NCBI GenBank assembly: GCA_025998875.1
Contig: AP024675.1
Span: 62,001-126,000 of the forward strand
Length of the DNA stretch: 64,000 nt
DNA from: Bacteroidota bacterium
Lineage (GTDB): Bacteria; Bacteroidota; Rhodothermia; JANXDC01
Reading direction: 5' to 3'
Below are positions 5,649 to 57,451 of this stretch, piece after piece. The notes below the pieces were generated by a model. It did no database searches, had not been told where the DNA came from, and was given only the letters and a program-made list of their open reading frames with translations. How positions within the stretch are numbered: the stretch's first letter is position 1; each line of letters opens with the position of its first letter. The position numbers were made by a program, and so were the translations under genes.

Positions 5649-5660
5649 CGGGTTTCTCCG

Positions 5661-6294: not shown

Positions 6295-6297
6295 GAT

Positions 6298-6975: not shown

Positions 6976-6983
6976 GTGTATCG

Positions 6984-7661: not shown

Positions 7662-7671
7662 AAGAGGCAGG

Positions 7672-7704
7672 TAAACCTACGCAACCGGAAGCGGAGGATG
7701 CAAA
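7672..7704 (-). promoter_or_regulatory. Promoter of the ccm-truA-M48 operon
   Basis: Minus strand TTTG (7704-7701), 21-nt spacer, TAGGTTTA (7679-7672); ccmB starts 11 nt downstream. It matches the TTTG/TAnnTTTG consensus and is back to back with the promoter of the divergent MFS gene. Confidence 0.65.
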
Positions 7705-7712
7705 AAAACAGG

Positions 7713-7743
7713 TCGAATTTTCCGTGAAATCCCCCTATCTTCG
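7713..7743 (+). promoter_or_regulatory. Promoter of the MFS transporter gene
   Basis: TCG (7713-7715), 20-nt spacer, TATCTTCG (7736-7743). The start codon follows only 11 nt later, so the mRNA should be nearly leaderless; no Shine-Dalgarno sequence is visible. The -33 part is a weak match. Confidence 0.45.
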
Positions 7744-7754
7744 CCCCCGCAGAT

Positions 7755-9155
7755 ATGCCCGAACCCATCCCGGTCCCCCCGAAGCAGCGAGTCTGGATCA
7801 CCCGAGGGGTACTCCTCGGGGTGTGGCTGGTGGCCCTGGAGGGCACCGTCGTGGCCACAGCCATGCCGCGCGTGATCCGGGATCTGGGCGGAGCGGCCCT
7901 CTACAGCCTGCCCTTCACCTTCTACATGCTGGCCATGACCATCAGCGGCCCACTCTGGGGTCGGTTTTCCGACCTCTGGGGCCGCCGTAAGCCCTATTTC
8001 GGGACCCTGGTGCTCTTTCTCCTCGGATCTGCCCTCAGTGGAGCGGCCTGGAATATGGAGGCTCTGGTCGGGGCGCGCACCTTGCAGGGCGCCGGGGCGG
8101 GAGGGCTACAGGCGCTCAACCTGACCCTGATCGGGGAGCTTTACCCCATGCGCGAGCGCGCTCGGGTGCAGAGCTACATCAGCCTGATCTGGGGGCTTTC
8201 TTCCGTGCTCGGTCCGCTCATCGGCGGGGTCATTACCGAGACGCTCTCCTGGAGGGCCGTCTTCCTGCTGGCTATCCCGGTGGGCCTGCTGGCCCTGACG
8301 CTGGTGGGCCGTTTCTATCCTCCCTGGCGCGGAACCGAAGAGGCGCCCCGCATAGACGGCCTCGGGGCGCTCTGGTTCAGCCTGAGCGGGGTGCTCGGAC
8401 TCTACGGATTGGAGAGCCAGCACTGGGGGCTAGTGGGCCTGGCGGCCCTGCTTCTGGCCGTTTTCCCCCGGATAGAGGCCCGACATCCGATGCCGTTACT
8501 GCCCCTGCAGCTCCTGCGGGACGGATTCCTGCGGCGCTCGCTGGGGAGCAATTTTCTGGGCGGGATGGCCTTTTTCGGCTCCGTAGCCTTCATCCCCCTC
8601 TGGGGACAGACCGCCCTCGGAAGCAGTGCCGTAGAGGCCGGCCTGTTGCTCACCCCGCTCAGCGGGGGATGGACGCTCAGCGGCCTGCTGGCCGCCCGCT
8701 GGCTGCCCAAATGGGGTCCACAACGGCTTATTCGCCTCGGCGCCGCGCTGATCACAACAGGTTTCACCGCCTGGGCCATGCTGAGCCAGAGCCCGCTATA
8801 CGTGCAGATGGGCTGTGGCCTGCTCGTCGGACTGGGAATGGGACAGGCCATGATCGCTTTGCTCATCAGCACGCAGGAAAGCGTAAAACGCACCGAGCTG
8901 GGCGTGGTGACAGCGCTCATTTTCTTCTGCCGCAACGTCGGAGGCGCGCTGGGCACAGCGCTCATGAGCGCCCTGCTGGGCCGTAACCTCTTCGAACCGG
9001 CGGGGCTTCTTGCCCGCTTCCCGGGGGTCCTTCTTTTCGCCGCCGCCCTGGGGCTGGGTATGCTCTTCATCGGAGGCACGCTGCGGGAACGCCCCCTCAG
9101 CGCCGAAGGCGCTCCGGATCGGGTGCAAACACCTCAGCAGGCCATCGGCTCGTAG
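7755..9155 (+). CDS. MFS drug-efflux-type transporter (EmrB/QacA-like)
   Basis: Major facilitator of 466 residues with a likely 14-helix (DHA2-type) layout. The first helix reads LEGTVVATAMPRVIRDLGG, the DHA2 motif D1 region. WGRFSDLWGRRKPY (about 73-86) is the cytoplasmic loop 2-3 motif A of MFS proteins. The second motif, GPLIGGVITETLSWRAVF, matches motif C-like helix 5. It probably exports drugs or metabolites by proton antiport; the substrate cannot be told. Its 3' end overlaps the convergent FAD oxidoreductase gene by 59 nt. Confidence 0.88.
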   Translation: MPEPIPVPPKQRVWITRGVLLGVWLVALEGTVVATAMPRVIRDLGGAALYSLPFTFYMLAMTISGPLWGRFSDLWGRRKPYFGTLVLFLLGSALSGAAWNMEALVGARTLQGAGAGGLQALNLTLIGELYPMRERARVQSYISLIWGLSSVLGPLIGGVITETLSWRAVFLLAIPVGLLALTLVGRFYPPWRGTEEAPRIDGLGALWFSLSGVLGLYGLESQHWGLVGLAALLLAVFPRIEARHPMPLLPLQLLRDGFLRRSLGSNFLGGMAFFGSVAFIPLWGQTALGSSAVEAGLLLTPLSGGWTLSGLLAARWLPKWGPQRLIRLGAALITTGFTAWAMLSQSPLYVQMGCGLLVGLGMGQAMIALLISTQESVKRTELGVVTALIFFCRNVGGALGTALMSALLGRNLFEPAGLLARFPGVLLFAAALGLGMLFIGGTLRERPLSAEGAPDRVQTPQQAIGS

Positions 9156-10209
9156 CCGCCCATCTGGGCAGCACCTCCGGCCGGTCTTCCCGGATGCAAC
9201 GGGCCAGCTTCGCCCCCAGCGCGGGCGCCCACAACAGACCCCGAGACCCCAGAGCGCCGAGCAGAAACAGCCCGGGCCATCCCGGAACCGGACCCACAAG
9301 GGGCCGGAAATCCGCCGATGCAAGGCGCAGGCCGGACCAGAGCTCCACGGCGCTGGCCTCCTCCAGGGGAGGATACAGCTCGGCAAAGCGCCTCCAGAGC
9401 CGCTCGGAAGATTCCGTCTGGAAGGCGGGCCCATCACAGGCACGATACACCCCTCCCAGCCAGGCCTCCTGCTCGGAGGCCGGAAGCAGATGCCCTCGAT
9501 ACTGCAACACCACGGAGGGCACGGGCCGAAAACGGAGCCGCAACAGTTCACCCTGGTAGCGCTGCACGGGCATGCGGGGGAACCAGTCCCGCAACCCCGC
9601 CCCGGGAGCCAGCACCACGCACGAGGATCGTATGCACCCCCAGGAGGTGTGCGCCCGCCATCCGGAAGGGGTCCACTCGAGCCTTTCCACGCTTCCGGAG
9701 AGCACACACAGGCCGACTTCCCGCAGCCGGGCCTCGAGCCGGGCGAGCAATCCGGCGCCCGAGAACACATATACCGGCGCGATCCGATAGGCGTGGCCCG
9801 GTTCCTGCAGACGGAGCTCGGGGCAGTGTGGCCGGACCCGGTCTGCCTCAAGCGGCGTGACGCTCATCCCCGCTTCCCGGAACCGGTCCATCCCCCGCTG
9901 CCGGGATCGCTCCAGGCGTGCGGCCTCCTGATCGTCGGCCGGAATCCGGATTAGCTCCGCGGGGGTCAGCTCCGGGATCAGCGACCGCAACCAGGAGAGC
10001 GCCACCCGGTAAGCCCACACGGCCTCCGGGGACGGATACAGGGAGCGTGCGGAGAAGGGGTGCAGCAGCGCCCGGGGGACTTGCGAGGCGCCCGCGCCAG
10101 GGTCTCGGATGAGCACAAGCTCCCCGGCCGGCAGGCCGGATCGGACCAATGCTTCAGCCAGGGTCAGCGCGGCCCACCCGCCGCCTACGATGAGCACGCG
10201 GGGACTCAT
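9097..10209 (-). CDS. MnmC-type FAD-dependent oxidoreductase domain protein
   Basis: DAO-fold flavoprotein of 370 residues with an N-terminal dinucleotide-binding motif (VLIVGGGWAAL, 5-15) and a C-terminal G-L-x-L-x-x-A-D-F-R-P-L-V-G-P signature. In E. coli MnmC the C-terminal FAD domain removes the carboxymethyl group from cmnm5(s2)U34 of tRNA and the N-terminal methyltransferase then makes mnm5. Here the two activities are separate genes in the same order, overlapping by ATGA (4 nt). The start at 10209 was chosen because the Rossmann motif starts a few residues later. The assignment to tRNA modification is inferred from the partner gene. Confidence 0.75.
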   Translation of the reverse strand: MSPRVLIVGGGWAALTLAEALVRSGLPAGELVLIRDPGAGASQVPRALLHPFSARSLYPSPEAVWAYRVALSWLRSLIPELTPAELIRIPADDQEAARLERSRQRGMDRFREAGMSVTPLEADRVRPHCPELRLQEPGHAYRIAPVYVFSGAGLLARLEARLREVGLCVLSGSVERLEWTPSGWRAHTSWGCIRSSCVVLAPGAGLRDWFPRMPVQRYQGELLRLRFRPVPSVVLQYRGHLLPASEQEAWLGGVYRACDGPAFQTESSERLWRRFAELYPPLEEASAVELWSGLRLASADFRPLVGPVPGWPGLFLLGALGSRGLLWAPALGAKLARCIREDRPEVLPRWAATSRWPAEVFAPDPERLRR

Positions 10210-10961
10210 CGGGTCAGGAAAAAGCGCTCGTATGGCAACACGGTGTACCCCTCGAGGACCTCGGCCCGATGTGCGGCCACGGTCATTTCCCGCTTGCGCA
10301 GAATCCCGGGCAGGCGGGCAATGACCAGGCGGGCCCGCAGCATGGCGCGTCGCGCCGCGGTGGAGGCCCCGTAGGTGGCCAGAATCCCATCCGGAGCCAT
10401 GCGGTAGGCCAACCAAGCAAAACAGGCCCGTGTCCAGCATTCCGGGTTCACCTGGGGGCCAAAGGGATCATGATAGACCGCCTGGGCCCGCAGGCGAGGT
10501 AGGGAGGCCCGACGCCAGTCCACCGGATACAGATACAGGCAGATGCGTCCCCCCATGCCCAGCGTAATGACCGGGTTCGGACCCGGATCCCGCCGCGCGC
10601 GCGCCAGCGCCTCCTGCACCACATCGACCAGCTCGGGATGGGTAATGCGCTCACGAAATCGCAATGGCTCTATCAGTTCGGGACTCAAAGGATCGCGCTC
10701 AAGGGCGTAGTACTCGAGCAGACCCCGGGCATATCGGTGCAGAAAGGCCTCAGCCGTCAGGAGAAAGTTTGTCCCCGCCCCGAAGCCCAGCTCCAGGACC
10801 TGCCACGGGGGCGGGTGACGCCCCAGCCGCGTGCCTTCTACAAACACATAGCGGGACTCGGTGAAGGCTCCGGCCAGAGAGCGCAGGGAAACACCCCTGC
10901 CGGGGTCCTGTAACGTCCAGGAGCCATCTCCGGTCTGTACGGGCACGTAAAGCGCCATCAT
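10206..10961 (-). CDS. MnmD-like tRNA methyltransferase (DUF752)
   Basis: SAM-dependent methyltransferase matching the N-terminal MnmC/MnmD family, which makes the last step of mnm5(s2)U34 in tRNA wobble positions. The 251 residues contain the family opening DGSWTLQDPGRG, the SAM loop LELGFGAGTNF (about 56-66) and the catalytic-region motif DPFGPQVNPECWT in place of the E. coli D-x-F-A-P-x-x-N-P-x-M-W. GGAGG precedes two consecutive ATG codons (10961 and 10958); either could be used. It is followed by the FAD partner with a 4-nt overlap. Confidence 0.82.
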   Translation of the reverse strand: MMALYVPVQTGDGSWTLQDPGRGVSLRSLAGAFTESRYVFVEGTRLGRHPPPWQVLELGFGAGTNFLLTAEAFLHRYARGLLEYYALERDPLSPELIEPLRFRERITHPELVDVVQEALARARRDPGPNPVITLGMGGRICLYLYPVDWRRASLPRLRAQAVYHDPFGPQVNPECWTRACFAWLAYRMAPDGILATYGASTAARRAMLRARLVIARLPGILRKREMTVAAHRAEVLEGYTVLPYERFFLTR

Positions 10962-11099
10962 CGGGCCTCCGGGCTGTACAAAGTACACGGTGGAATTACA
11001 TTTCGCCACGGCCGGCGAACCGGAACCGGGCCGCTGCGGACTCGTTCAATGAGGGCGGGTGGGCCGCATTTGTGGCAATGAATTTGCAGGTTAACTTGC

Positions 11100-11130
11100 T
11101 TGACAAGCCTACCGACCCCGCATAAATTCC
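11100..11130 (+). promoter_or_regulatory. Promoter of clpC
   Basis: TTG (11100-11102), 20-nt spacer, TAAATTCC (11123-11130), in line with the other starts in this window. The same TTG extends to TTGACA, so a -35-like reading is also possible. The leader to the clpC ATG is about 90 nt with no strong Shine-Dalgarno. Confidence 0.6.
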
Positions 11131-11223
11131 TCCAGACTGCGGCGGTCAGAGGCCAAGAGGCTTCGTGCGGGGCTCGGCTCAAAGAGTCAGACGGACAAAC
11201 AACGACAGACATCACGGGCTTCT

Positions 11224-13734
11224 ATGGAAGGTAACTTCTCCAACCGGGTACGTGACGTAATCTCCTACAGCCGAGAGGAGGCCATTCGGTTAGGGCACGA
11301 CTACATCGGCACCGAACACCTCCTGCTGGGGATCATCCGGGAGGGCGAAGGGATCGCGGTCAAGATCCTGCGCAATCTCGGGGTGGACCTGCAGCGCCTG
11401 AAGCGGCGCATCGAGGAGGCCGTCCGACCCTCGGGAGGAACCTTTACGGTAGGCAACCTGCCCTTGACCAAGCAGGCCGAAAAGGTGCTCAAGATCACCT
11501 ATCTGGAAGCCAAGCTCTACAAGAGCGATGTCATCGGCACTGAACACCTGCTGCTGTCCCTGCTGCGAGACGAGGAGAACATCGCCGCCCAGATCCTGCA
11601 CGAGTTCGGCGTCTCTTACGAAAGCGTGCGCAGTGAGCTGGACGCCATCATCAGCGGTCGCCCCAGTCGATCCAACGCCTCAGCGCGGACCGCTTACTTT
11701 ACGACATCGATTGCCTCCAAGACGGAGTCCAGAAAGATGGAGAAGTCCAAAACCCCCGTACTGGACAACTTCGGCCGGGATCTGACCAAGCTGGCCGAGG
11801 AGGGCAAGCTCGATCCCGTTATCGGACGCGACCGGGAGATCGAGCGCGTCGCCCAGGTGCTCAGCCGCCGCAAGAAGAACAATCCCGTTTTGATCGGTGA
11901 ACCGGGTGTGGGGAAGACGGCCATCGCCGAAGGGCTGGCCCTGCGCATTGTGCAGAAGAAAGTCAGCCGCGCCCTCTACAACAAACGCATCGTCTCCCTG
12001 GATCTGGCCGCGCTCGTGGCGGGCACAAAGTACCGCGGACAGTTCGAGGAGCGCGTCAAGGCCGTCATGAACGAGCTTGAGAAAAACCCAGACGTGATCC
12101 TGTTCATCGACGAGCTGCACACACTCGTTGGCGCCGGAGGCGCCTCGGGCTCCCTGGATGCCTCGAACATGTTCAAGCCCGCTCTGGCGCGGGGCGATAT
12201 TCAGTGCATCGGGGCGACCACGCTGGATGAATACCGGCAGTACATCGAAAAAGACGGCGCCCTGGAGCGGCGTTTCCAGAAGATCATCATCGATCCTCCG
12301 ACCCCGGAGGAAACGCTGGAGATCCTGCGCAACATCAAATCCAAGTACGAAGAGCACCATGGCGTCCGCTACACCGACGAGGCGCTCGTGGCGGCCGTGA
12401 AGCTATCGGAACGCTACATCACGGATCGGTTCCTGCCCGATAAAGCGATCGACGTCATCGACGAGGCCGGAGCGCGCGTGCGCTTGTCGAACATCAAGGT
12501 GCCGCAGGAGATCCTCGATCTGGAAGCCGAAATCGAACGCATCAAAGAGGAGAAAAACCAAGTTGTCCGGAGCCAGCGCTTCGAAGAGGCCGCCCGTCTG
12601 CGAGACCGCGAAAAGCGGCTTCTCGAAGAGCTCGAGCTGGCCAAGGAACGCTGGGAGCGCGAATCGGCCAATACGATCTATGAGGTCACGGCCGATCACA
12701 TCGCCGAGGTTGTGGCCATGATGACGGGCATCCCCGTGCACAAGATCGCCCAGAGCGAGTCGAACAAACTGCTCAACATGGCCGAGGAACTCAAAAAGCA
12801 GGTCATCGGGCAGGATGAGGCCATCGACAAGCTTGTGCGGGCGATCCGACGCAGCCGGGCGGGGCTCAAGGATCCCCGGCGGCCCATCGGCTCCTTCATC
12901 TTCCTCGGCCCCACCGGGGTGGGCAAGACGGAGCTGGCCAAGGCCCTGGCTCGCTACCTCTTCGATACGGAGGAGGCCCTCATCCGCATCGACATGTCCG
13001 AGTACATGGAGAAGTTCTCCGTCAGCCGGCTCATCGGCGCCCCGCCCGGATATGTGGGCTACGAAGAAGGCGGACAGCTGACGGAAAAAGTCCGGCGCAA
13101 GCCGTACTCGGTGGTGCTGCTCGACGAGATCGAAAAGGCCCACCCGGATGTGTTCAACATCCTCCTGCAGGTGCTCGACGATGGTATCCTGACCGATGGG
13201 CTGGGCCGGCGCGTGGACTTCCGCAACACGATCGTCATCATGACCTCCAACATCGGGGCCCGGGATATCCGCAACCTCGGCAAGGGCATCGGATTTACCC
13301 CTGTGCCCCAAGAGGCCAATTACAAGAACATGAAGTCCACGATCGAGGAGGCGCTGCGTCGGGTATTCAATCCGGAATTCCTCAACCGGATCGACGACGT
13401 GATCGTCTTCCACCCGCTGGAGAAGCCGCACATCTACCAGATCATCGACGTCATGACCGCCGATCTTATGAAGCGGGTGCGCGATCTCGGCTATGAGCTT
13501 GAGATCACAAAGGCGGCCAAGGATTTCCTCGTCGAGAAGGGTTACGACCCGCAGTTCGGCGCCCGGCCGCTGCGGCGTGCGATCCAGAAATACGTCGAGG
13601 ACCCCATGGCCGAGGAGATCCTCAAAGGCTCCTTCCGGGAGGGAGACCGCATCAAGCTCGATCTGGACAAAAAGTCCGGCGAGCTGGTCTTCCGCACCCA
13701 GCGCGCCGCTGAGCCGGCAGAAAAAGCAGAATAA
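11224..13734 (+). CDS. clpC: ATP-dependent Clp protease ATPase subunit ClpC
   Basis: Hsp100 unfoldase that feeds substrates to ClpP. The 836 residues show two Clp N repeats (1-145), AAA+ domain 1 with Walker A GEPGVGKT (225-232), a short UVR-type middle segment (about 440-475) that marks ClpC instead of ClpB, and AAA+ domain 2 with GPTGVGKT (562-569). The C-terminal domain is followed by a charged tail. It has its own promoter and a strong terminator and stands alone; mcsA/mcsB and ctsR are not adjacent. Confidence 0.96.
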
Positions 13735-13753
13735 CGTTCCTTTTCCTGTACAC

Positions 13754-13784
13754 AACCCGAGGCCTGCAGGCCTCGGGTTTTTTT
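13754..13784 (+). terminator. Rho-independent terminator after clpC
   Basis: A 26-bp perfect palindrome (13754-13779) followed by a run of T to 13784, 20 nt after the clpC stop codon. It separates clpC from mscL. Confidence 0.92.
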
Positions 13785-13811
13785 ATCCCTTTACCAAAAG
13801 GAGACATGCCT

Positions 13812-14186
13812 ATGAGGATGAGGAAAGAGCTCAAAGGGCTACGGGATTTCCTGTTGCGCGGCAACGTGGTGGAGCTGGCCGTCGCCGTGCTCATCGGGTC
13901 CGCCTTCGGTCAGGTGGTCAACAGCCTCGTATCCGACGTGTTCACCCCGCTGTTCGGGGCGCTGGGGGGCGCACCGGACTTCTCTTCCCTGCATCTGGGA
14001 CCTGTCGCCATAGGTCGATTCCTCAACGCCGTAGTCAGTTTCCTCATCACGGGCAGCGCCATTTATCTGCTTGTGGTCCTGCCCATGCGGAAGGGGCAGG
14101 AACGCGGCAATACCCCTGCCCCGGAGCCGCCGGAAGAGGTTCGCCTGCTGCGCGCCATTCTGGAGGAGCTCCGAAACCGCCAGTAA
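13812..14186 (+). CDS. mscL: Large-conductance mechanosensitive channel MscL
   Basis: Pentameric inner-membrane channel that opens under membrane tension in hypo-osmotic shock. At about 124 residues it is typical in length. It has an amphipathic N-terminus with the family motif FLLRGNVVELAVAVLIG (TM1), a periplasmic loop, TM2 and a charged C-terminal helix. AAGGAG is 8 nt before the ATG at 13812; an ATG at 13806 would be too close to it. It converges on murQ. Confidence 0.95.
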   Translation: MRMRKELKGLRDFLLRGNVVELAVAVLIGSAFGQVVNSLVSDVFTPLFGALGGAPDFSSLHLGPVAIGRFLNAVVSFLITGSAIYLLVVLPMRKGQERGNTPAPEPPEEVRLLRAILEELRNRQ

Positions 14187-14244
14187 CTTCCCCCTTGGGC
14201 CGCAGCCGACCCGCAAAGCCTCTGCGGGCGACAGCGCGAAGGGC

Positions 14245-15162
14245 TCATCCCTCCTGTATGGCGCGGCGTACAAAGCCCCCGGCCCGGTGCAGGCGTCGAC
14301 GCGCCTCTTCGGCATCGACCCCGGCCAGGAGCATGACCAGAGCCGTCTTGACGTGCCCGGAGGCGGCCTCCAGAGCCCGGGAGGCGGACTCGTAATCGGC
14401 TCCGGTGAGGAGCATGAGAATGCGACGGGCGCGCTGGCGCAACTTCTGGTTGGTCAGCTGCAGATCCACCATGAGGTTTTCGTATACCTTCCCGAGCCGG
14501 ATCATGCTCGCTGTGGAGATCATGTTCAGGACGAGCTTCTGGGCCGTACCGCACTTCATGCGCGTAGAGCCCATGATCACCTCCGGTCCCACCACGGGGC
14601 AGATGGCCACATCGACCTGGAGGTCGAACTCCTCGCGGGGATTGCAGGTGACGAAAATCGTGCGCGCCCCTCGGCGCCGGGCCTCCTCAATGGCCCCCAC
14701 CACAAACGGGGTGCGCCGGCTGGCAGCCAATCCGCAGACCACGTCGCGCTCGCTTACTCCGCGTTCGCGGATAGCGCGCGCCCCGTCCTCGGCCCGATCT
14801 TCGGCCCCCTCCTGAGCCCGGAAAACGGCTTCCGGTCCCCCGGCGATAATGGCCTGCACCATTTCGGGGTCTGTGCCAAAGGTCGGCGGACATTCGGCCG
14901 CATCCTGGACGCCGATACGGCCGCTTGTGCCGGCGCCCACGTAGAAGAGCCTCCCTCCCTGGCGGAAAGCCTCCACGACAAGCTCCACCGCTTGCGCGAT
15001 ATAGGGGATCTCCCGGCCCACGGCCTCCGGCACCCGTCGATCCTCCGCGTTGATGATACGCAGGATCTCCTCCGTATCGGCCAAGTCGATATGCATGGAG
15101 GCCGGATTGCGCTGCTCGGTCAGCAGGCGGCTCAGCTGCGCGAAAAGCTCTCGATCCCCCAT
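14245..15162 (-). CDS. murQ: N-acetylmuramic acid 6-phosphate etherase MurQ
   Basis: Cleaves the lactyl ether of MurNAc-6-P to GlcNAc-6-P and D-lactate during peptidoglycan recycling. The 305-residue SIS-domain protein contains FYVGAGTSGRIGVQDAAECPPTFG, the signature of the family, and VIMGSTRMKCGTAQK. The ATG at 15162 lies 2 nt after the argS stop; the frame continues upstream inside argS but shows no homology there. No MurNAc transporter or kinase is visible nearby. Confidence 0.95.
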   Translation of the reverse strand: MGDRELFAQLSRLLTEQRNPASMHIDLADTEEILRIINAEDRRVPEAVGREIPYIAQAVELVVEAFRQGGRLFYVGAGTSGRIGVQDAAECPPTFGTDPEMVQAIIAGGPEAVFRAQEGAEDRAEDGARAIRERGVSERDVVCGLAASRRTPFVVGAIEEARRRGARTIFVTCNPREEFDLQVDVAICPVVGPEVIMGSTRMKCGTAQKLVLNMISTASMIRLGKVYENLMVDLQLTNQKLRQRARRILMLLTGADYESASRALEAASGHVKTALVMLLAGVDAEEARRRLHRAGGFVRRAIQEG

Positions 15163-15164
15163 GA

Positions 15165-16808
15165 CTACATCTGCTCCGGCGCGGACACCCCCAGCACGGC
15201 CAGCCCGTTGCGCAGCACCAGGCGCGTGGCCTGCGCCAGATGCATGCGCGCGGAGGCCAGCTCCGGCTCCTCGCCCAGAATCCGGCATTCGTGATAGAAG
15301 CGGTGAAAGGCCGCGGCGACCTCGTTAAGATAGACGATCACCCGATGGGGCTCCAGGTGCTCGGCCGCCTCCTCGATCACCCCGGGCAGGTCCACGAGCG
15401 CCTTCATGAGCGTGATCTCGTGCGGATGCAGGAGCCGTTCGTAAGCGGGATGCTCCCGGAAACGAACCCCCACCTCCTGCGCTTTGCGCACAATAGAGGC
15501 GATGCGCGCATGGGCATACTGCAGGTAAAAGACCGGGTTTTTCTCCGAGGCCTCCCGGGCCAGATCCAGATCAAACTCCAGGTGTGTGCCCGGACTGCGC
15601 ATGAGGAAGAAAAAGCGCGTCACATCCGCCCCGACCTCATCGATGAGCTCATCGAGCGTAACAAATGTAGCCCGCCGAGTGCTCATCTTGTAGGGCTGGC
15701 CGTCCTTGAGCAGGGTGACGAACTGATAGATGAGCACCCGGATGCGTTCGGTCGGATATCCCAGCGCCCCTACGGCGGCCAGCACATCCGGATACGTGTC
15801 GATATGGTCGGCCCCGAAGACATCGATGATGAGATCGTAGCCCCGCTCGAGTTTGTTGATGTGGTAGGCTATATCCGGTAGCCGATACGTGGGCTCGCCG
15901 GTGCTTTTGACCAGCACCACATCGCGATGCCGCCCGAGCGCGGTGCCCCGGAACCAGATAGCCCCCTCGGCCTCGTAAATCAGATCCCGCTCCCGGAGCC
16001 GGTCGATCACCCGCCAGATGGCTCCGGACTCATAGAGGCTGTGCTCGTTGAAGAAGCTATCCATGCGGATGGATAGCCGCTCCAGAGTGCGCACGATCTC
16101 GGCAAAGATCATGCGCTCGGCCGTCTCCTTGAAGATCGCCAGATCCTCTGTATCGGCCAGCCCGTCTCCGTGCTCCTCTAGAAGGGCATGAGCGATGTCC
16201 CGGATATATTCTCCCTGATAGCCTTCTTCAGGAAAGTCCACCGGCTTGCCGAGCAGCTCCAGGTAGCGGGCGCGCACGGACTCGGCCAGCAAGCGCATCT
16301 GCCGGCCGGCGTTGTTGAAGTAGTACTCGCGCGTGACCTCGTAACCTGTGCACGCCAGCAGACGCGCGATGGCATCCCCTAGAACGGCGTTGCGTCCGTG
16401 TCCCACGGTAAGGGGACCGGTGGGGTTGGCGCTCACAAATTCGACCAAGGCCCGCCGCCCCCGATTGGATTCGCTACGGCCGTACTCCTCGCCCCGGCTG
16501 AGGATCTCCGCCAGCACGGCGTGCAAAAACGCGGGCGCGTAAAAGAGGTTGATAAATCCGGGCCCGGCCACCTCGACGCGCGCGATCCGGGCCGGATCGA
16601 GCTCCAGATGCTCCACCAGGCGCCTGGCCACCTCCCGTGGCGGAAGGCCGACCTCCGGAGCCAGGCGCAGGGCCACGTTCGTGGCCCAGTCCCCGTGTTC
16701 GGGACGGGCCGGTTTCTGAAAGATGATTTTCTGCAGCGACGCGCCGGAAAAGCCGGCTTGCTCCGCGGCGGCACGAAAGGCCGCTTCCAGATACGGACGT
16801 AGATCCAT
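15165..16808 (-). CDS. argS: Arginyl-tRNA synthetase
   Basis: Class I aminoacyl-tRNA synthetase charging tRNA-Arg. Its 547 residues carry the HIGH-equivalent VGHGRN within NPTGPLTVGHGRN (near residue 126), the KMSKS-equivalent KMSTR (near 373) and the C-terminal DALR anticodon-binding domain ending LRNGLAVLGVSAPEQM. The N-terminal Arg-tRNA synthetase domain covers about 1-90. It is transcribed from a consensus promoter with a 25-nt leader and followed 2 nt later by murQ. Confidence 0.97.
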   Translation of the reverse strand: MDLRPYLEAAFRAAAEQAGFSGASLQKIIFQKPARPEHGDWATNVALRLAPEVGLPPREVARRLVEHLELDPARIARVEVAGPGFINLFYAPAFLHAVLAEILSRGEEYGRSESNRGRRALVEFVSANPTGPLTVGHGRNAVLGDAIARLLACTGYEVTREYYFNNAGRQMRLLAESVRARYLELLGKPVDFPEEGYQGEYIRDIAHALLEEHGDGLADTEDLAIFKETAERMIFAEIVRTLERLSIRMDSFFNEHSLYESGAIWRVIDRLRERDLIYEAEGAIWFRGTALGRHRDVVLVKSTGEPTYRLPDIAYHINKLERGYDLIIDVFGADHIDTYPDVLAAVGALGYPTERIRVLIYQFVTLLKDGQPYKMSTRRATFVTLDELIDEVGADVTRFFFLMRSPGTHLEFDLDLAREASEKNPVFYLQYAHARIASIVRKAQEVGVRFREHPAYERLLHPHEITLMKALVDLPGVIEEAAEHLEPHRVIVYLNEVAAAFHRFYHECRILGEEPELASARMHLAQATRLVLRNGLAVLGVSAPEQM

Positions 16809-16833
16809 AGAGAATCCGTGAGGGTTCGACCGG

Positions 16834-16865
16834 CAAAGTTAGAACAGGCCCACGGCCGACGGCAA
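16834..16865 (-). promoter_or_regulatory. Promoter of argS-murQ
   Basis: Minus strand TTG (16865-16863), 21-nt spacer, TAACTTTG (16841-16834). The -7 element is a perfect TAnnTTTG match. Confidence 0.72.
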
Positions 16866-17029
16866 CGCGGTCGCAGTCCGCTCCGGTGTACGGAGATGTA
16901 CGGAAAAACGAACACTCCGGACAACGGCATCCCCCAGAAATCCCCGTTTTCCGGATGCGGGCAAGCTCGGCATACCGCTTGCTCACTTTAGCTCGAGAGT
17001 GTAGATAAGATAGGTGACGCCTCCTTCTG

Positions 17030-17066
17030 GACCCCGTGTGTGTGGTGACACACGGGGTCTTTGTTT
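17030..17066 (+). terminator. Terminator-like hairpin upstream of the LOG gene
   Basis: An 11-bp perfect inverted repeat (17030-17040 with 17049-17059, 8-nt loop) followed by a T-rich stretch. On the plus strand it has no upstream gene to terminate; argS lies divergent. It may end a short RNA from the 16.87-17.03 kb region or insulate the LOG promoter, whose -7 element begins at 17066. Confidence 0.6.
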
Positions 17067-17073
17067 ATCTTCG
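17066..17073 (+). promoter_or_regulatory. -7 element upstream of the LOG gene
   Basis: TATCTTCG, 16 nt before the start codon. The -33 position (17043-17045) lies in the hairpin loop and reads TGG, a weak match. Confidence 0.4.
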
Positions 17074-17089
17074 TTGCGCCTTCGAGACG

Positions 17090-17632
17090 ATGGACCGTCC
17101 GTATATCGCCATCTTCGGTAGCTCGCGGGTGCGCCCCGGAGATCCCCTCTACGCGCTGGCCGAGGAGCTGGGCTTTCGCCTGGCGCAGGCCGGGTACAAC
17201 GTCTGCAACGGAGGCTACGGGGGCGTCATGGAGGCCAGCGCCCGAGGCTGCCGGCGCGGAGGAGGACGGGCGCTGGGTGTGCCCATTGCGGGATCGGGGA
17301 CCCCGAACGCATACGTAGACGAGCTGGCCCCGGCAAGAGATCTGTGGGAACGACTCCGCACCCTCGTAGAGACGGGGTCCGGATACGTCGTTCTGCCCGG
17401 CGGCACCGGCACGCTTCTGGAGCTGGCCATGGTCTGGGAGCTGGCCTATAAAGGATGGGCCCGATCCGCGCCGATATGGGTCTGGGAACCCTTCTGGGGG
17501 CCGGTCCTGCAGCGCATCCAGAGCGAACCCGCTTCCGAGGGCCTGGCCCCCGGACTGAACCCGCTTGATCTGCTTCGGCCAGTCGGTACGATAGAGGAAA
17601 TCCTGATCGACCTTTCTGGAGCCTCTCGCTGA
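17090..17632 (+). CDS. LOG family protein (putative nucleoside 5'-monophosphate phosphoribohydrolase)
   Basis: Rossmann-like protein of 180 residues with the LOG/lysine-decarboxylase-like signature PGGTGTLLE (102-110) and an early GGYGGVMEA motif. Family members cut ribose-5-phosphate from nucleoside monophosphates, in plants to activate cytokinins. The ATG at 17090 places the IAIFGSSR strand at the N-terminus as usual. It is a single gene. ilvE follows with its own promoter, whose -33 TTG begins immediately after the stop codon. The physiological substrate in bacteria is not established. Confidence 0.85.
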
Positions 17633-17663
17633 TTGCGCTCAAACTGACCTCCGGCTATCTTGC
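17633..17663 (+). promoter_or_regulatory. Promoter of ilvE
   Basis: TTG (17633-17635), 20-nt spacer, TATCTTGC (17656-17663), with a 24-nt leader to the ATG. Confidence 0.6.
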
Positions 17664-17687
17664 TGCCCGAAAGCCGGGAATGTGACC

Positions 17688-18602
17688 ATGAAGCGGCTGT
17701 GCGAATGGATCTGGTTCAACGGCCGGCTGGTGCCCTTTGAAGAGGCGCGCGTGCACGTGCTGGCCCACGTCATTCACTACGGATCGAGCGTTTTCGAAGG
17801 GATCCGCGCCTACAGCACCCCCAAAGGCACCGTGGTCTTCAGGCTGCGCGAACACCTGCGGCGGCTCTATCATTCCGCCCGGATCTACCGGATGTCCATC
17901 CCCTATGCTATGGAAGCGCTTCATGAGGCCGTGCTCGAAACCATACGGGCCAACGGGTTCGCCTCCTGCTACATCCGCCCGGTCGTCTTTCGCGGATACG
18001 GCACCATGGGGGTAAACCCGCTCAACTGCCCCGTTGAGGTGAGCATCGCCGCCTGGGAGTGGGAATCCTATCTGGGCCAGGAGGCCCTCACGGAGGGCGT
18101 GGACGTGCAGGTCTCCTCCTGGCATCGCATGTCGGCCAACAGCATCCCGTACATGGCCAAGGCGGGTGGCAATTACCTTAACGCCCAGCTGATCAAAATG
18201 GAGGCCCTGATGCATGGCTACAGCGAGGGGATCGCCCTGGATCAGGAGGGCTTCCTGGCGGAGGGGAGCGGGGAAAACCTGTTTCTAGTCTGCGATGGAC
18301 GTCTGATCACTCCCTCGCTGGAGGCCCCCATTCTGCCCGGCATCACGCGCGACGCGGTCATCCGCCTGGCCCGAGATATGGGCATAGAGGTGATCGAAAC
18401 ACGCCTGCCGCGAGCTGCCCTGTATGTGGCCGATGAGCTCTTCTTTACCGGCACAGCCGCCGAAATCACCCCGATCCGGTCTGTGGATCGCATCCCTGTT
18501 GGAACCGGAACCCGAGGACCGATCACCGCCCGCCTGCAGGAGGCATTTTTCCGCATCGTACACGAGGGCGAAGACCCCTACGGATGGCTTACGCCCGTCT
18601 GA
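17688..18602 (+). CDS. ilvE: Branched-chain amino acid aminotransferase
   Basis: PLP-dependent class IV transaminase that exchanges amino groups between glutamate and Leu, Ile or Val keto acids. At 304 residues it is normal in length. The PLP lysine is K158 in YMAKAGGNY. The helix motif [11 protein letters not shown] and the C-terminal [12 protein letters not shown] also match the family. A GTG at 17682 is also in frame, but the ATG at 17688 is preferred. The next genes make pantothenate from ketoisovalerate, a valine-pathway intermediate, so the grouping is metabolically sensible. Confidence 0.94.
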
Positions 18603-44585: not shown

Positions 44586-44703
44586 CGCGCCGGAAGCGGT
44601 TGTTACCAGATCGTAGCAGAGTACCCCCCAACCCGGACCACCGGGGCCGAAGATTTCCGGATACCGGCGCATCCCGGCGGAGAACCGACGCGAGGTACAG
44701 GGC

Positions 44704-47340
44704 TTAGCTTGCCTCCGAGGTTTCTGCTTCCTTCGGCTCCGTCCACTCGACCGTGCACCCGTAGTCCCGAAGGAGCTTCTCCAGCTCCTTGCGCTTCGTT
44801 GCCATCTGACCTGTTGGGTCGTGCACCCGGATCTCTACGGTGGCATGATCCAGCTGCTGGAGGAGTTGCCGAGCAGCTTGGAGCAGGGGATAGAGCATGG
44901 AAGCGCTCGTCCGGACTCGAAGCGTCAGGGGTTTTCGGGACGGCGGCTCGGGCGGCAGAGTCGGCTCTCCGGGAGGAACTAACACGGCCTGGCTATTGCG
45001 GAGAACCTCGTCGGGAACCGGCTCCCGGATGTAGATCCGGTCCCCGACTTGTATGCCAAAGATGCCCTTCTCCACCCCCTGCCGGATGCTTTCGTAAATC
45101 CGTTCCATGTTCTCCACTAGCGGCTGCCCGGGTGTTCCGGTGAACACGGTGGCGACCTGGGAGACGGGAACCTTCTGCTCCCCGATGCCAAGGGTTTGGG
45201 ACAGATATTCCGGACTCAGTTCGCGAACCAGCTCCCCTTGCTTCTCCAGGACACCGGCGACAAACTCCCCCAGCGTCTTCGCCTTGATGGCACTGGGATC
45301 GCTTACGGGCACAGGGCGCACCCCGCCCGCCTCAGGACGATAGATGCTCTGGTACATCTGGCGGATCAGGACCTCGATCTCCGCTTCTTTATCCTTGAGC
45401 TGCTGCCGCACCTGGTCGTGGTCGTCTCGCTCCATCTCGCGGAACGAAGAGGAGCGCTCGACCCCCTTCAACGCACACCATCTCCTCACCGAGGCATGCA
45501 GCACCGATGCACGTGTTCGATCCGGCACCAAAAACACCAGCATGTTCTTATTGGTGCGGATGCCACCACCCGCTGAGTTCAACGCTTGTTGCATCCAGGT
45601 GTGAGCATCTGCCACATCGAAGGGGAGCAATACCAATGTGGGTTGCGCCCGATCCGGCACCAACTGGGGTTCCCCCGGAGCGAGAACGACTTGAAAGACA
45701 CCCTCCCCCCTACCTGCCACTTGTTCGACCCACTCCCGAAGCGCGTGCTCCAGCTGCTCATCGCTCACCTCGGCTTCAAAATCCAGGATGACCTTGTTGA
45801 GGTTGGGCTTGACCGTAAAGAGATACCTCCGGTCGCGGGAGCGCAAATACCAGAGCCCCTCGCGCAGCCGTCCCAGCACCTCCGAGACCATCGCCGGGTT
45901 GATGTCGGGACGGAGGAGCGCCGTGCGAAGCTCTTCTTCCGTTGCGCCGGCGTCGCGCATTGCCGCCGAGATGCTGTAGAGAAACGTGCAGGTGGCCGCT
46001 CCCTTGCCCAACTGCTCCCGCGCATATTCGCTTCCCAACTGGCGTTCGATCTCTCCAGCCCGCTGTAACACATCCCCTGTTACAATGGCGTCCCAACTGC
46101 TATCCAGCAGCCGCACGACTTCGCCGCGAATGTGTCGGTCCGAAAGATCAATGTGATAGGGCTGAATGAAGAGTGCCGACCCCGGACGCTGATTCCAAAG
46201 CCGCCGCAACACCAGCGCCAGCAGCCGCAGCGCCCCGCGCGTGCGCTGAAACTGCGGATGCGGTCCCCAGCGCTCATACAGCAGGTCAATGAGTTCCGGG
46301 TGAAACGGATATGCCTGGAGCATCCGCGCCTTGTACTCGGGCGAGCGCAGCCGGTCGGGGAAGAAGCGGGCATACTCGTCATAGTACTCCCGCAGGGCAT
46401 CCACCGCCTTTTTATGGTCGCGTTCGTTCCCAACGCTTCGGAACAACCGCCGCCGCAGCACGCCAAAGACCTCATCCTGCGCTACCGGCGTCTCCACCAG
46501 CTCCATCCGCCCCAGCACCTTCTTGGCGTGCTGGAAGAGCCGCTCGGCGATCTCCTGATTCTCCGCCGGAACCTCCAGCGATGAGGCAGGCAAGGCGGCC
46601 ACCAAAGTGCTCTTCGGGACCGCGCTCACCGCTGAGGTGAGTTCGCCCAAGAAGGCGCCCGTCTGCTCCATCAGGTTGCTATCGCCGACCTTCACGGCGC
46701 GGGCTTTGAGCAGGTATTCGAGCACCTCGTCCATCAGGATCAGCGCTGGCTGGAAGCGCTGCAGAAGTGCCGTAAGGAGAGCGCCTCCAGGGGCAGTGCG
46801 GGTCACATCGGCATCTTGTACCATGGCGTAACCTTCCTTGCCTCCAAGCTGGTATGCCAACTCTCCCCACAGCGTGCGAATCGTGATCCCCTCCTCGGCG
46901 CGCCGCTCCCGCACATCCAGCCCGCGCCCGTCCAGCACCGCCACCCGCACGCCCGACGGCAACGCCCGCACATTCAGCCGCCCCAGAACAGGTTTTACGG
47001 CGTCGTGCTCACTGAGTACATCCGGAGAGCGGGCGATATGGTAGAGCGCAGTCATGGTGTGGGTCTTGCCGCCGCCAAAAGGCGTCTCCAGCCGCACAAT
47101 CGGGGCGCCGCGCTCCAGCCCCAAAAGCCGCCCCACCACCCGCTCTAAGAGATCCGCCAGCGCCCGCGTCATGAAGGTGCGCGTGAAGAACCGCTCCGGG
47201 TCGGTATAGTCTCGATCTGCCGTGCCCTGCGCCACATGGTGCAAGCTGATGGCAAAGAGCGACGGGTCCATGTCCCGCAAGAACACATCCGGATGCGGCT
47301 CGCAGACTTCCCAGACTCGCTTGACTCCTCGTGCTGCCAT
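44704..47340 (-). CDS. DUF499 ATPase (BrxC/PglY-like), defence cluster
   Basis: P-loop ATPase of 878 residues. Walker A is TPFGGGKT (86-93) and Walker B is ALILMDEVLEYL (near 200). The middle part includes a helical region with FHPELIDLLYERWG, as in DUF499 proteins, and a charged helix near 640. DUF499 ATPases are the BrxC/PglY components of BREX and of related methylase clusters, where they form the ATP-driven core. It is 14 nt downstream of the DUF1156 methyltransferase and is the last gene of the cluster; GAGG lies just before the ATG. Its precise role in this cluster is inferred from relatives. Confidence 0.85.
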   Translation of the reverse strand: MAARGVKRVWEVCEPHPDVFLRDMDPSLFAISLHHVAQGTADRDYTDPERFFTRTFMTRALADLLERVVGRLLGLERGAPIVRLETPFGGGKTHTMTALYHIARSPDVLSEHDAVKPVLGRLNVRALPSGVRVAVLDGRGLDVRERRAEEGITIRTLWGELAYQLGGKEGYAMVQDADVTRTAPGGALLTALLQRFQPALILMDEVLEYLLKARAVKVGDSNLMEQTGAFLGELTSAVSAVPKSTLVAALPASSLEVPAENQEIAERLFQHAKKVLGRMELVETPVAQDEVFGVLRRRLFRSVGNERDHKKAVDALREYYDEYARFFPDRLRSPEYKARMLQAYPFHPELIDLLYERWGPHPQFQRTRGALRLLALVLRRLWNQRPGSALFIQPYHIDLSDRHIRGEVVRLLDSSWDAIVTGDVLQRAGEIERQLGSEYAREQLGKGAATCTFLYSISAAMRDAGATEEELRTALLRPDINPAMVSEVLGRLREGLWYLRSRDRRYLFTVKPNLNKVILDFEAEVSDEQLEHALREWVEQVAGRGEGVFQVVLAPGEPQLVPDRAQPTLVLLPFDVADAHTWMQQALNSAGGGIRTNKNMLVFLVPDRTRASVLHASVRRWCALKGVERSSSFREMERDDHDQVRQQLKDKEAEIEVLIRQMYQSIYRPEAGGVRPVPVSDPSAIKAKTLGEFVAGVLEKQGELVRELSPEYLSQTLGIGEQKVPVSQVATVFTGTPGQPLVENMERIYESIRQGVEKGIFGIQVGDRIYIREPVPDEVLRNSQAVLVPPGEPTLPPEPPSRKPLTLRVRTSASMLYPLLQAARQLLQQLDHATVEIRVHDPTGQMATKRKELEKLLRDYGCTVEWTEPKEAETSEAS

Positions 47341-50094: not shown

Positions 50095-50160
50095 ACTAGC
50101 GCAATTGTTTGCACGCGAGCAATTCTTGATCGCTCGCGAGCGATTATTTGCGCGATCGAG
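50095..50160. repeat. Palindromic, degenerate tandem repeats between defence genes
   Basis: Three diverged units of about 18-21 bp occur in a row (from about 50100, 50117 and 50138), each a variant of GAGC(A/G)ATTnTTTGCnCGC. Between them lies a perfect 16-bp palindrome at 50129-50144 that covers the stop codon of the AlbA_2 gene. The stretch is more AT-rich than its surroundings and lies directly upstream of the methyltransferase start. It could be an operator, an RNA processing hairpin or a protein-binding array. Confidence 0.6.
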
Positions 50161-51846
50161 CATACCGGACCCCTTTGGTAGAACCACCCAGCTTCTGTAT
50201 TTTGCCCTCCGTTTCCAATCGCTTGAGCAGACGATAAGCCTGCATAGAATTCAGCTGGCATAATTCGGCTACCTCCTTCCGGCTAATAGAGCCGAAACGA
50301 TCAATATACTGCAGGATCATCTGTTCCTGTTGAATCGGTTCGAAGCCGCGGCGGCGCACATAGGCAGAAGGGACACCGAGGCGCCTGTATGTAGCGGCGG
50401 AGAGGTGATAGGTGCGTCCTTTCCGCTCGCCCCGCGCTTCCACCAGGCCGCTTTCCACGAGGTGCTCCAGCACCGCGCGGGCGTCCGGCTCGGGCTTTTG
50501 CAGAAGCTTTGCCGCCTGAGGGGTCGTCAGGCTCCGCTCCCGCCAGAGGGTGTTCAGGATGAGGAGTTCATTCAGCCCCAGCAGGCGCCCTGCCCGACTT
50601 TCCTCCTCCCCCACCAGCCGGACGAATTCCAGGTTCGCCTTGCCACCATAGAGCACGAGCACGACGTCCGTCGGCGTGCTCCGTTCATAGGAGGGCGCCG
50701 GGCGACCCGTGCGGAGCTGCTCGGTGAAGATGATGTCAATGCCCCGTCCGGTCCGTTCCACAATACCCGCTCGCTTGAAGGCATCCGCCAGCAGCGGATT
50801 GCGCGGCCGGGGCGGTGTGACCAAGATGTTGTCCAGGCGTACCCCTTCGGGGAAGCCGCCGGGGTTGGAGATCACCAGGTGGTCGTCATACCATTGAATG
50901 TGCACCGCGCCCAGGCGGGTGTAGTCCCGATGGATCAGGGCGTTGGCCACCGCTTCGCGGAAGGCGCGTTCGGAGTATTCGGGCACGCCCACGCGCAGCA
51001 GCCCCATCATCAGTTCCTCTTCGCGATAGCGGGCGCGGAAGCGCTGCAATACCTCCTCCATCACACGTAGTAGGGGGACGCGGAAAAACTCGTTGACTTC
51101 TACGTCCTGCCCCCGCAGCACCTGAAACGCCACCTCATGGGTGGGCAGCAGGCGCCGCAGGGACTCTTCCTTGCCGAAGAGCAGGAGACCCAGGACGCGC
51201 ACGCGGGTGACCTCGTGATTGGCCTCCACGGCGCCGAGGGCTTTGGCCAGCTCCTGATCGGGGAGTTCGAGCAGGGTCGCATCGCCTCGTCCTTGGCTTT
51301 CCCGCACGAAGCGGCGGAAGCGCTCGAATTCCAGGGGATCCAGATCATCCCAGGAAGCGCCGTCCACCACCAAACGGGAGTAGTCCAGGAGCCCTCGTGA
51401 GCTTTGCAGGGATTGGAAGTCGGCCGGTTGCATAGGCAAGCAGATTGGTTCGCCCCGTCCCCCGATGGCGCGCCGCAGATACACGCCGTCGGTGGTGCCG
51501 ATGGGCACTCTGACAGGGGGAACTTCGATGGCGATGACCTCCACGCCTTCCGGCTCCAGGGGCACTACAAAGACCCGCACGGGGAGGGAGGGGTTGGTGC
51601 GGTTGGCGATCAGGGCCTGCAGGCGCAAGGGATCGGTTCGGTCGCCATGACGGGGACGAGCACCGGTCAGGCGCCCGTCGTCCTCGACGCCGATGAGGAT
51701 CCAGCCGCTCTCGGAGCCGGGGCGGTTGGCCATGCACACGACGGTCTGGACGATCTCATCGTCGGAGAGCGGACGATGTGACTCACCCTTGAATTCCAAA
51801 TCCAGGCTTTCGCCCCGTTGGACAAGTTCCCACAGGCGTTCTGGAG

Positions 51847-51850
<4 letters not shown>
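50144..51850 (-). CDS. Schlafen AlbA_2/HATPase domain protein, defence cluster
   Basis: A 568-residue protein with an N-terminal AlbA_2 (Schlafen core) domain (about 1-135; LDLEFKGES and GWILIGVEDDG), a GHKL-type HATPase_c_4 domain (about 260-400; REAVANALIHRDY, TGRGIDIIF) and one or two winged-helix domains at the C-terminus (about 430-568). Proteins of this kind are often labelled ATP-dependent DNA-binding regulators and are frequent in defence islands. It overlaps the helicase gene by ATGA, so it is a true cluster member. It may regulate the operon or act as an effector; the sequence does not decide. Confidence 0.85.
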
Positions 51851-55173
<3,323 letters not shown>

Positions 55174-55200
55174 GGCCCTTCTCCGTCGTGTTTGTCTAGC

Positions 55201-55638
55201 TCAAATGGCGAGATTCCATGCGACGAGCCCTGCCTCGATCGTTTTGCCCACGCCCACATCGTCGGCGATGAGGAGCCGGACCGGATTGAGCCGGAGCGCC
55301 ATCATCAGCGGAACGAGCTGGTACGTGCGGGGACGCACCGAAATGCGCCCAAGCGACCGGAACGGTCCAGCCCCTTCGCGCAGCAGTAGACGAGCCGCCT
55401 GCCAGAGAAGCCGCACGCTCTGCGCATCGGCGACCGCATCCGGCGCCGGCAGCGGAAAGCGCGAGGGGGCAAGGCGCTCTGCCGGAAACGAGTACGCCAC
55501 CAGGTCTGAAAGCCGCCGGTGCAGGGCAATTGTGTCATCGCTCGTGCCGGTCAATGGGCGAAGCATAACAACCTCACCCTCTTCACCGACCAGCACCCAA
55601 TCCCGATGGCGGAAGCGGACGATGGAGCCGATGATCAT
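55201..55638 (-). pseudogene. Truncated N-terminus of a DISARM DrmD-like SNF2 helicase
   Basis: A 145-residue frame that matches the beginning of DrmD-type helicases: an opening R/K-x-R-x-R-x-W-V-L-V segment, GPFRSLGRISVRPRTYQLVPLMMALRLNPVRLL, and Walker A IADDVGVGKTIEAGLV. It stops four residues after that (WNLAI), so motifs Ia-VI and all of the motor are missing. DrmD proteins are normally over 900 residues. The complete helicase of the cluster starts 27 nt later with its own N-terminus, so this is not a frameshift of the same gene. It may be a decayed relic or an internal deletion scar; a retained short product is less likely. Confidence 0.7.
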
Positions 55639-55729: not shown

Positions 55730-55861
55730 ATCCCTCATGGGCGGACACGCACCCGACGAATACCACCGCCCCGAAGGACAGAGGGCGCCCGCCGCATCCG
55801 GGGGCCGGGCCCCAATGGCCCCTCCGGACCAGCGGCAGAGGCCCGAAGTCGGAGAGCAGAC

Positions 55862-57451
55862 CTACAGAATTGTATCCCGGCCAAAGGCTGGATCGGGGTA
55901 GGGATAGTCGATCATGTAGTGCAGGCCGCGGCTTTCCCGGCGCATCTGCGCGGAGCGGATAATGAGATAGGCCACCTGGATCAGGTTGCGCAGCTCGAGC
56001 AGCTCCAGCGACGGGGGCCTCTGTCGGTATATCGCCTCCGTCTCTCTGCGCAACCGCTCCACCCGATGCAGCGCCTGCTGCAGATGGGAGCGGGAACGCA
56101 CAATGCCCACGTAATCGGACATCAGACCCTGAAGCTCTTCTCGGGCTTGCGCAATGCGGCCGCTCTCTTCCGGCCGACCGGTATCCACCCCCTCCCATTG
56201 CGGCACGTCGCCCCGCAGATCAGCCTCTCGGAGTTCCGCATAACTGGCCTGCGCGGCGCGGTGGGCGAAGACAAGCGCCTCCAACAGCGAGTTGCTCGCC
56301 AGCCGGTTGGCCCCGTGCAGGCCGGTATGGGCGACCTCACCGGCCGCGTACAGATGCCGGATCGTCGTCCGTCCGTGGGAGTCCACCATCACCCCACCGC
56401 AGACGTAATGGGCGGCAGGCACGACGGGAATCCACTGCCTCGTCATATCGATGCCGTAGCGCAGGCAGGTCGCATACAGGTGGGGAAAGCGCTCGCGGAT
56501 CTCCCCGGCCGGCCTGTGCGTCACGTCCAGATACACGCAGCGATCACCCCGGCGCTTGAGCTCCGCATCAATGGCGCGCGCCACGACGTCGCGTGGGGCC
56601 AGCTCGGCCCGCTCGTCATACCGAAACAGAAAGCGCTCTCCGTCGGCTGTACGCAGATAAGCCCCGTATCCCCGCAGGGCCTCGGAGAGCAGAAACCCTC
56701 CCCCCTCGGGATGATAGAGCGCGGTGGGATGAAACTGGATGAACTCCATATTGGCCAGCCGGGCCCCGGCGCGATACGCCATAGCGAAACCATCGCCTGT
56801 GGCGATCTGCGGATTTGTCGTATGCCGGTACACCTGCCCGGCCCCGCCCGTGGCCAGCAGGGTCAGGCGAGATACAAACAGGCATACCTTTCCGCTGCGG
56901 ATATCGAGCACATAGGCCCCGTGACAGGTGATCTCTCGATTCCCCCTGCGGCGAGATCGGCCTGCAGGGGGAAGGGTGATCAGCTCCAGGGCGGCGTGGT
57001 GCTCGAAAAAGCAGATGTTGCCCTGTGCGCGCGCTCGATTCAGCAGAACCGTCTCAATGGCCCGGCCGGTCTGATCGTGTACGTGCACGATCCGCGGGTG
57101 GGAATGCCCGCCTTCGCGGGCCAGGTCCAGGTCGCCATTTCGGCGCGTAAAGGGCACCCCCCAGCTGAGCAGCTCCCGGACGCGCTCTGGACCTTCCCGG
57201 ACGACCATCTCGACCACCTCGGGATGGCACAGCCCGGCACCGGCGGCCAGCGTATCGCGTATGTGTGCCTCCGGGGAGTCGGCCCCATCCCAGGCAACAG
57301 CGATCCCCCCCTGGGCGTAGTTCGTATTGGAGTCGGCCGATTCCTTTTTGGTGACCACGGCCACATGGGCCCGTTCGGCCATCTTGAGCGCATATACCAG
57401 GCCCGCAATCCCGCTTCCGAGCACGAGCACATCACACTCCCATCGGGCCAT
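55862..57451 (-). CDS. nadB: L-aspartate oxidase NadB
   Basis: FAD enzyme that oxidises L-aspartate to iminoaspartate, the first step of de novo NAD synthesis. Its 529 residues have VLGSGIAGLVYALKMAE (10-26), NTNYAQGGIAV, the substrate loop EFIQFHPTALY and the C-terminal HTGLHGANRLASNSLLEALVFA. The ATG overlaps the nfi stop by 1 nt (TAATG). nadA and nadC are not in the window. It is the last gene of the prfB-nfi-nadB run. Confidence 0.96.
   Translation of the reverse strand: MARWECDVLVLGSGIAGLVYALKMAERAHVAVVTKKESADSNTNYAQGGIAVAWDGADSPEAHIRDTLAAGAGLCHPEVVEMVVREGPERVRELLSWGVPFTRRNGDLDLAREGGHSHPRIVHVHDQTGRAIETVLLNRARAQGNICFFEHHAALELITLPPAGRSRRRGNREITCHGAYVLDIRSGKVCLFVSRLTLLATGGAGQVYRHTTNPQIATGDGFAMAYRAGARLANMEFIQFHPTALYHPEGGGFLLSEALRGYGAYLRTADGERFLFRYDERAELAPRDVVARAIDAELKRRGDRCVYLDVTHRPAGEIRERFPHLYATCLRYGIDMTRQWIPVVPAAHYVCGGVMVDSHGRTTIRHLYAAGEVAHTGLHGANRLASNSLLEALVFAHRAAQASYAELREADLRGDVPQWEGVDTGRPEESGRIAQAREELQGLMSDYVGIVRSRSHLQQALHRVERLRRETEAIYRQRPPSLELLELRNLIQVAYLIIRSAQMRRESRGLHYMIDYPYPDPAFGRDTIL

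What the first reader, a model, noticed from the sequence alone, without database searches (positions are those of the whole stretch)
55201..55638. Relic of a DrmD-type helicase cut off just after Walker A
145 residues match the start of DISARM DrmD helicases and end four residues after the GVGKTIEAGLV motif. The 27-nt gap to a different, complete helicase suggests that an ancestral helicase was deleted or replaced at this point. It hints that the cluster arose by recombination between DISARM-like and BREX-like parts.
Basis: partly seen in the sequence, partly recalled or inferred. Interest (0 to 1): 0.65.

Follow-up and report, generated by a model that had tools for sequence, protein, structure and literature searches.

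The report
Stub of a lost ARMADA defence helicase
A bacterial anti-phage gene cluster begins with the cut-off first 140 residues of a helicase from a different, displaced defence system (an ARMADA-type operon), a fossil of one defence operon meeting another rather than a new gene.

Summary
The 145-aa ORF (55638-55201, minus strand) is real. It is the start of a SNF2/RapA-like defence helicase and breaks just after Walker A. It is not DrmD proper: its full-length relatives (~930-1000 aa) fail NCBI's DrmD and DpdE cut-offs, and in most genomes lie between a YprA/DruE-like helicase and a PglX/DrmMI-like methylase, the layout published as ARMADA (DISARM-related). About 84 relatives from one scan and about 40 matching genomes in two phylum samples showed no conserved ~145-aa gene. 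No other piece of the helicase and no partner methylase was found in the genome. The following genes form a complete Hma ("Type-1 BREX-related") system with a Schlafen-type accessory. The whole ~11.2-kb block is inserted at the 3' end of nadB; the sister species has the empty site. So the stub belongs to the insertion, and loss at this spot is not shown. The mirror arrangement, an hmaA stub before an ARMADA-type helicase, occurs in two Thermoguttaceae genomes, and an hmaA scrap precedes one in another planctomycete. The relic idea holds; the DISARM-like x BREX-like idea holds in corrected form. An ordinary relic with a mildly interesting recurrent junction.

The parts
55201..55638 (-). 5' stub of an ARMADA-type (BrxHII/RapA-like, PADLOC 'DpdE'-like) helicase; residues 1-~140 homologous, last ~5 residues are not
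55174..55200 (-). 27-nt gap; holds a Shine-Dalgarno-like GGAG 7 nt before the hmaA ATG
   Evidence: direct reading
51847..55173 (-). hmaA-like SNF2 helicase with C-terminal NOV_C (PF13020) domain, intact, 1108 aa
   Evidence: 68% identical to G064:C112
50144..51850 (-). Schlafen AlbA_2 + HATPase_c_4 + winged-helix protein, overlapping hmaA by 4 nt; accessory type described beside BREX/BR systems
   Evidence: PMC12839542
47355..50072 (-). hmaB, DUF1156 methyltransferase
44704..47340 (-). hmaC, DUF499 AAA+ ATPase
55855..55861 (.). left end of the insertion at the 3' end of nadB (approximate); TCTGC here and at the right end
   Evidence: alignment to the empty site in G001 (L046)
44608..44620 (.). 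right end of the insertion (approximate), before the S10-type peptidase gene

Best explanation
The ORF is the promoter-proximal stub of an ARMADA-type operon (BrxHII/RapA-like helicase first, PglX/DrmMI-like methylase second). Its remainder was removed by a break just after Walker A, and the break is now joined to the start of a complete Hma (Type-1 BREX-related) operon. Shown: identity of the stub, full length of its homologues, the break point, failure to find a second piece or the methylase in the genome, intactness of the Hma operon, and position inside a ~11.2-kb insertion at nadB. Inferred: that one deletion or replacement event made the junction; that it is recent, since the stub shows no decay; and that the stub has no enzymatic role, because it has a Walker A but none of the later helicase motifs. 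Unresolved: whether the junction formed here or in a donor; among the genomes searched, the closest homologues of both parts are mostly hot-spring planctomycetes.
For: Residues 3-143 fit PDLC02853. Homologues are ~930-1000 aa apart from contig-edge or frame-interrupted copies. 28 of 29 columns at least 98% conserved are kept; the one mismatch, residue 142, lies past the break. Low dN (0.17-0.21) against saturated dS, like intact pairs. Own-genome searches find only the stub and hmaA, and no partner methylase. 62 of 84 loci have YprA-like upstream and methylase downstream, the ARMADA layout (PMC12458937). The closest clade has helicase then methylase with YprA later or elsewhere. Hma genes confirmed. 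Empty site in the sister species. The closest hmaA (68%, G064) has no stub in its 1.35 kb upstream.
Against: The ORF is clean, has a plausible ribosome-binding site and no decay, so retained function cannot be excluded. No relative shows the intermediate (an ARMADA operon at the nadB site). An empty methylase search is weak evidence on its own.
Confidence: 0.85

Rival explanations
1. The stub is kept because the hma operon now depends on the promoter and leader of the displaced ARMADA operon: a captured 5' end whose coding part matters little. (Compatible with the best explanation; it adds a reason for retention.)
For: Only 27 nt separate stub and hmaA; the stub is undecayed and in the operon's orientation. 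In Thermoguttaceae an hmaA 5' stub likewise precedes the intact helicase.
Against: No consensus promoter found on either strand of the region, though that scan covers sigma-70 types only. In L053 the analogous stub is decaying with indels, so its coding sequence is not needed there.
Confidence: 0.25
2. A functional small protein (Tudor-like N-domain) acting with the Hma system.
For: Open frame; N-domain (residues 1-60) predicted with pLDDT 83-94; BR helicases carry an N-terminal Tudor domain (PMC12839542).
Against: Not found as a short conserved gene in the genomes surveyed; the nearest hmaA lacks it; it ends inside the motor domain rather than at a domain boundary. Most of the model beyond residue 80 is below pLDDT 50 and the PDB search gave no meaningful match.
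Confidence: 0.05
3. Assembly or sequencing artefact that joined two loci.
For: Only one genome shows this exact junction.
Against: The genome is a single 2.35-Mb contig; the island ends match the sister's empty site cleanly; a mirror junction exists in other genomes.
Confidence: 0.03

Closest known systems
[quoted passage not shown] PMC12458937
   Same: The stub's homologues sit in YprA-like helicase - BrxHII-like helicase - PglX-like methylase operons, or in the reversed order
   Different: Here only the first ~140 residues of one gene remain; no methylase, no adjacent YprA
DISARM DrmD (NCBIfam NF038317)
   Same: Same broad SNF2 helicase superfamily; residues 92-143 match
   Different: Full-length homologues score 333-341 bits against a cut-off of 610
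DpdE of Dpd systems (NCBIfam NF041062)
   Same: The PADLOC model labelled DpdE (PDLC02853) is the best match
   Different: Full-length homologues score 178-222 bits against NCBI's DpdE cut-off of 500
Hma / Type-1 DUF499-centred BREX-related system (PMC8565338, PMC12839542)
   Same: hmaA, hmaB, hmaC on one strand, plus a known accessory type
   Different: Carries a foreign helicase stub at its head, and the Schlafen gene sits between hmaA and hmaB

Membership tests
ARMADA | BrxHII/RapA-like helicase of the same family | tested here: met
   N-terminal ~140 residues only
ARMADA | complete helicase motor (motifs after Walker A) | tested here: not met
   ORF ends at residue 145; no other piece in the genome
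ARMADA | PglX-like methylase next to it | tested here: not met
   none in the window or genome; present in relatives
ARMADA | YprA/DruE-like helicase in the operon | tested here: not met
   own genome has only a distant DruE-like gene ~1.7 Mb away by coordinates, best matched by Druantia DruE models
DISARM (DrmD) | score above the NF038317 cut-off | tested here: not met
   stub 55 bits, full-length homologues 333-341, cut-off 610
DISARM | drmA, drmB, drmC in the locus | tested here: not met
   none among the window cluster's genes
Dpd (DpdE) | score above the NF041062 cut-off | tested here: not met
   21 bits for the stub, 178-222 for full-length homologues, cut-off 500
Dpd | 7-deazaguanine synthesis genes nearby | not tested
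   no dedicated search made
Hma / Type-1 BR (following genes) | SNF2 helicase + DUF1156 methylase + DUF499 ATPase in one operon | tested here: met
Hma / Type-1 BR | anti-phage activity | not testable with these tools
   needs a bench assay

The most novel reading that the evidence does not exclude
ARMADA and Hma operons repeatedly displace each other at the same chromosomal spots, with the incoming operon joined behind the outgoing operon's promoter and first-helicase stub, so that a new defence system inherits an expressed start.
Probability: 0.15. Interest if true: 0.5.

Novelty: new member of a known kind. Interest (0 to 1): 0.3.

Why it matters
Decayed neighbours in defence islands are common, but here the displaced system can be named, the break located, and a mirror-image junction found in other genomes. 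That makes turnover between two named families, DISARM-related ARMADA and BREX-related Hma, directly testable. It also warns annotators against calling DISARM or Dpd from such stubs.

Tried and rejected
Conserved small gene: not found in ~84 loci (genome scan), ~40 matching genomes (phylum samples), or viral contigs by the pattern method. Remnants of the ARMADA methylase at the 3' end of the island: no credible hit. Promoter scan: nothing found. Long terminal repeats of the island: only 9-nt chance-level matches. Structure and PDB search of the stub: low confidence after about residue 60, no meaningful match. In-frame stop as a read-through fusion: not pursued, a 1-in-3 coincidence. G148's 178-aa open frame looked like a second stub but is a frameshift-broken longer gene. 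One weak short match, G718:C379 (residues 70-143 only, 197-aa frame), was fetched but not explained.

Full report
What is there. The minus-strand ORF 55638-55201 encodes 145 residues, followed by 27 nt and a complete 1108-aa helicase. Residues 3-143 match PADLOC model PDLC02853, labelled DpdE, at 111.5 bits (E=7.8e-33); DrmD models match only residues 92-143 (NCBIfam). Pfam finds nothing. The ORF ends six residues after GVGKTIEAGLV, not four.

What it is a piece of. One scan of species genomes gave 80 loci; with relatives of the same class, 84 loci were compared. The encoded homologues are ~930-1000 aa except for copies cut by contig ends or with broken frames. The closest are Thermoguttaceae (77, 76, 73%), bacterium HR29 (74%) and, in the window's own class, G027 (68%). 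Phylum samples of 394 and 392 genomes gave 25 and 15 matching genomes, mostly with long frames; the short ones inspected were contig-edge or frame-broken, apart from one partial match that was left unexplained. In 62 of 84 loci the homologue lies after a ~1700-2100-aa DruE/YprA-like helicase and before a ~1300-aa DrmMI/PglX-like methylase. That is the layout of ARMADA (PMC12458937), not of DISARM or Dpd, whose NCBI cut-offs the full-length homologues fail. The assignment to ARMADA rests on this layout and on family resemblance; no tree of the helicase was built. In the clade nearest the stub the helicase is followed by the methylase with no YprA gene directly in front; in HR29 the YprA gene follows after the methylase.

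The break. Against 83 relatives, 28 of 29 columns conserved in at least 98% are retained; the exception is residue 142, past the break. DNA homology ends at about the codons for residues 139-140. dN to the closest relatives is 0.17-0.21 with saturated dS, like pairs of intact genes: no sign of decay, so the cut is recent or the stretch is constrained. The rest of the helicase and its methylase were not found in the genome (an empty search is weak on its own).

What follows it. The next genes are hmaA, a Schlafen-type protein, hmaB and hmaC: an Hma system, now also named Type-1 BR (PMC8565338, PMC12839542). Schlafen-family RNases with a minimal histidine kinase and wHTH are reported beside such systems. 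The closest hmaA found (68%) is in a Gemmatales genome, G064, where hmaB follows directly and 1.35 kb upstream holds no stub.

Where it sits. In the one other genome of the genus, G001, nadB and the S10 peptidase gene are adjacent. Alignment puts the insertion at the 3' end of nadB, with TCTGC at both ends, and shows ~11.2 kb of extra DNA including the stub. So the stub is part of the insertion. Whether the junction formed here or before arrival is not settled; GC content does not distinguish the parts.

Mirror junctions. In Thermoguttaceae L051 an hmaA 5' stub (to residue ~175; 91% nucleotide identity over 486 nt to an intact hmaA in another genome) lies directly before an ARMADA-type helicase. 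In L053 the same stub is decaying with indels and ends at nearly the same place, so this is best read as one shared event. In planctomycete G148 an internal hmaA scrap and an hmaC gene precede a frame-broken ARMADA-type helicase. With the window that is about three independent junctions in a sample of roughly 150 loci; no control set was made, so it is suggestive only.

Verdict. An authentic relic of an ARMADA-type helicase at the head of a Hma operon. No structure-based claim is made beyond an N-terminal small beta domain.

Noticed in passing
L051 9288-9821 and L053 9395-9818: hmaA 5' stub directly upstream of an ARMADA-type helicase, the mirror of the window's arrangement; intact frame in L051, decaying in L053
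   Followed up: yes
L211 (G148:C1) 5092-18373: hmaC, an internal hmaA scrap and a frameshift-rich ARMADA-type helicase plus methylase side by side; the frameshifts may be sequencing errors
   Followed up: partly
L200 (own genome C1) 6853-13840: A 1567-aa DruE-like helicase (best PADLOC match DruE1, 629 bits) after a 771-aa protein with no PADLOC match: probably a Druantia-like system elsewhere in the chromosome
   Followed up: partly
50144-51850: Schlafen AlbA_2/HATPase/wHTH protein between hmaA and hmaB, overlapping hmaA by 4 nt; absent between these genes in the closest homologue (G064)
   Followed up: partly
55862-55870: nadB ends six residues earlier than in the sister species, where the island is inserted at its 3' end; the class outgroups also end at about this point
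   Followed up: yes
L021 12817-18000: In G027 genes that look by eye like type III CRISPR (Cmr1-like) follow the ARMADA-type helicase-methylase pair, with the YprA-like gene ~13 kb after the methylase
   Followed up: no
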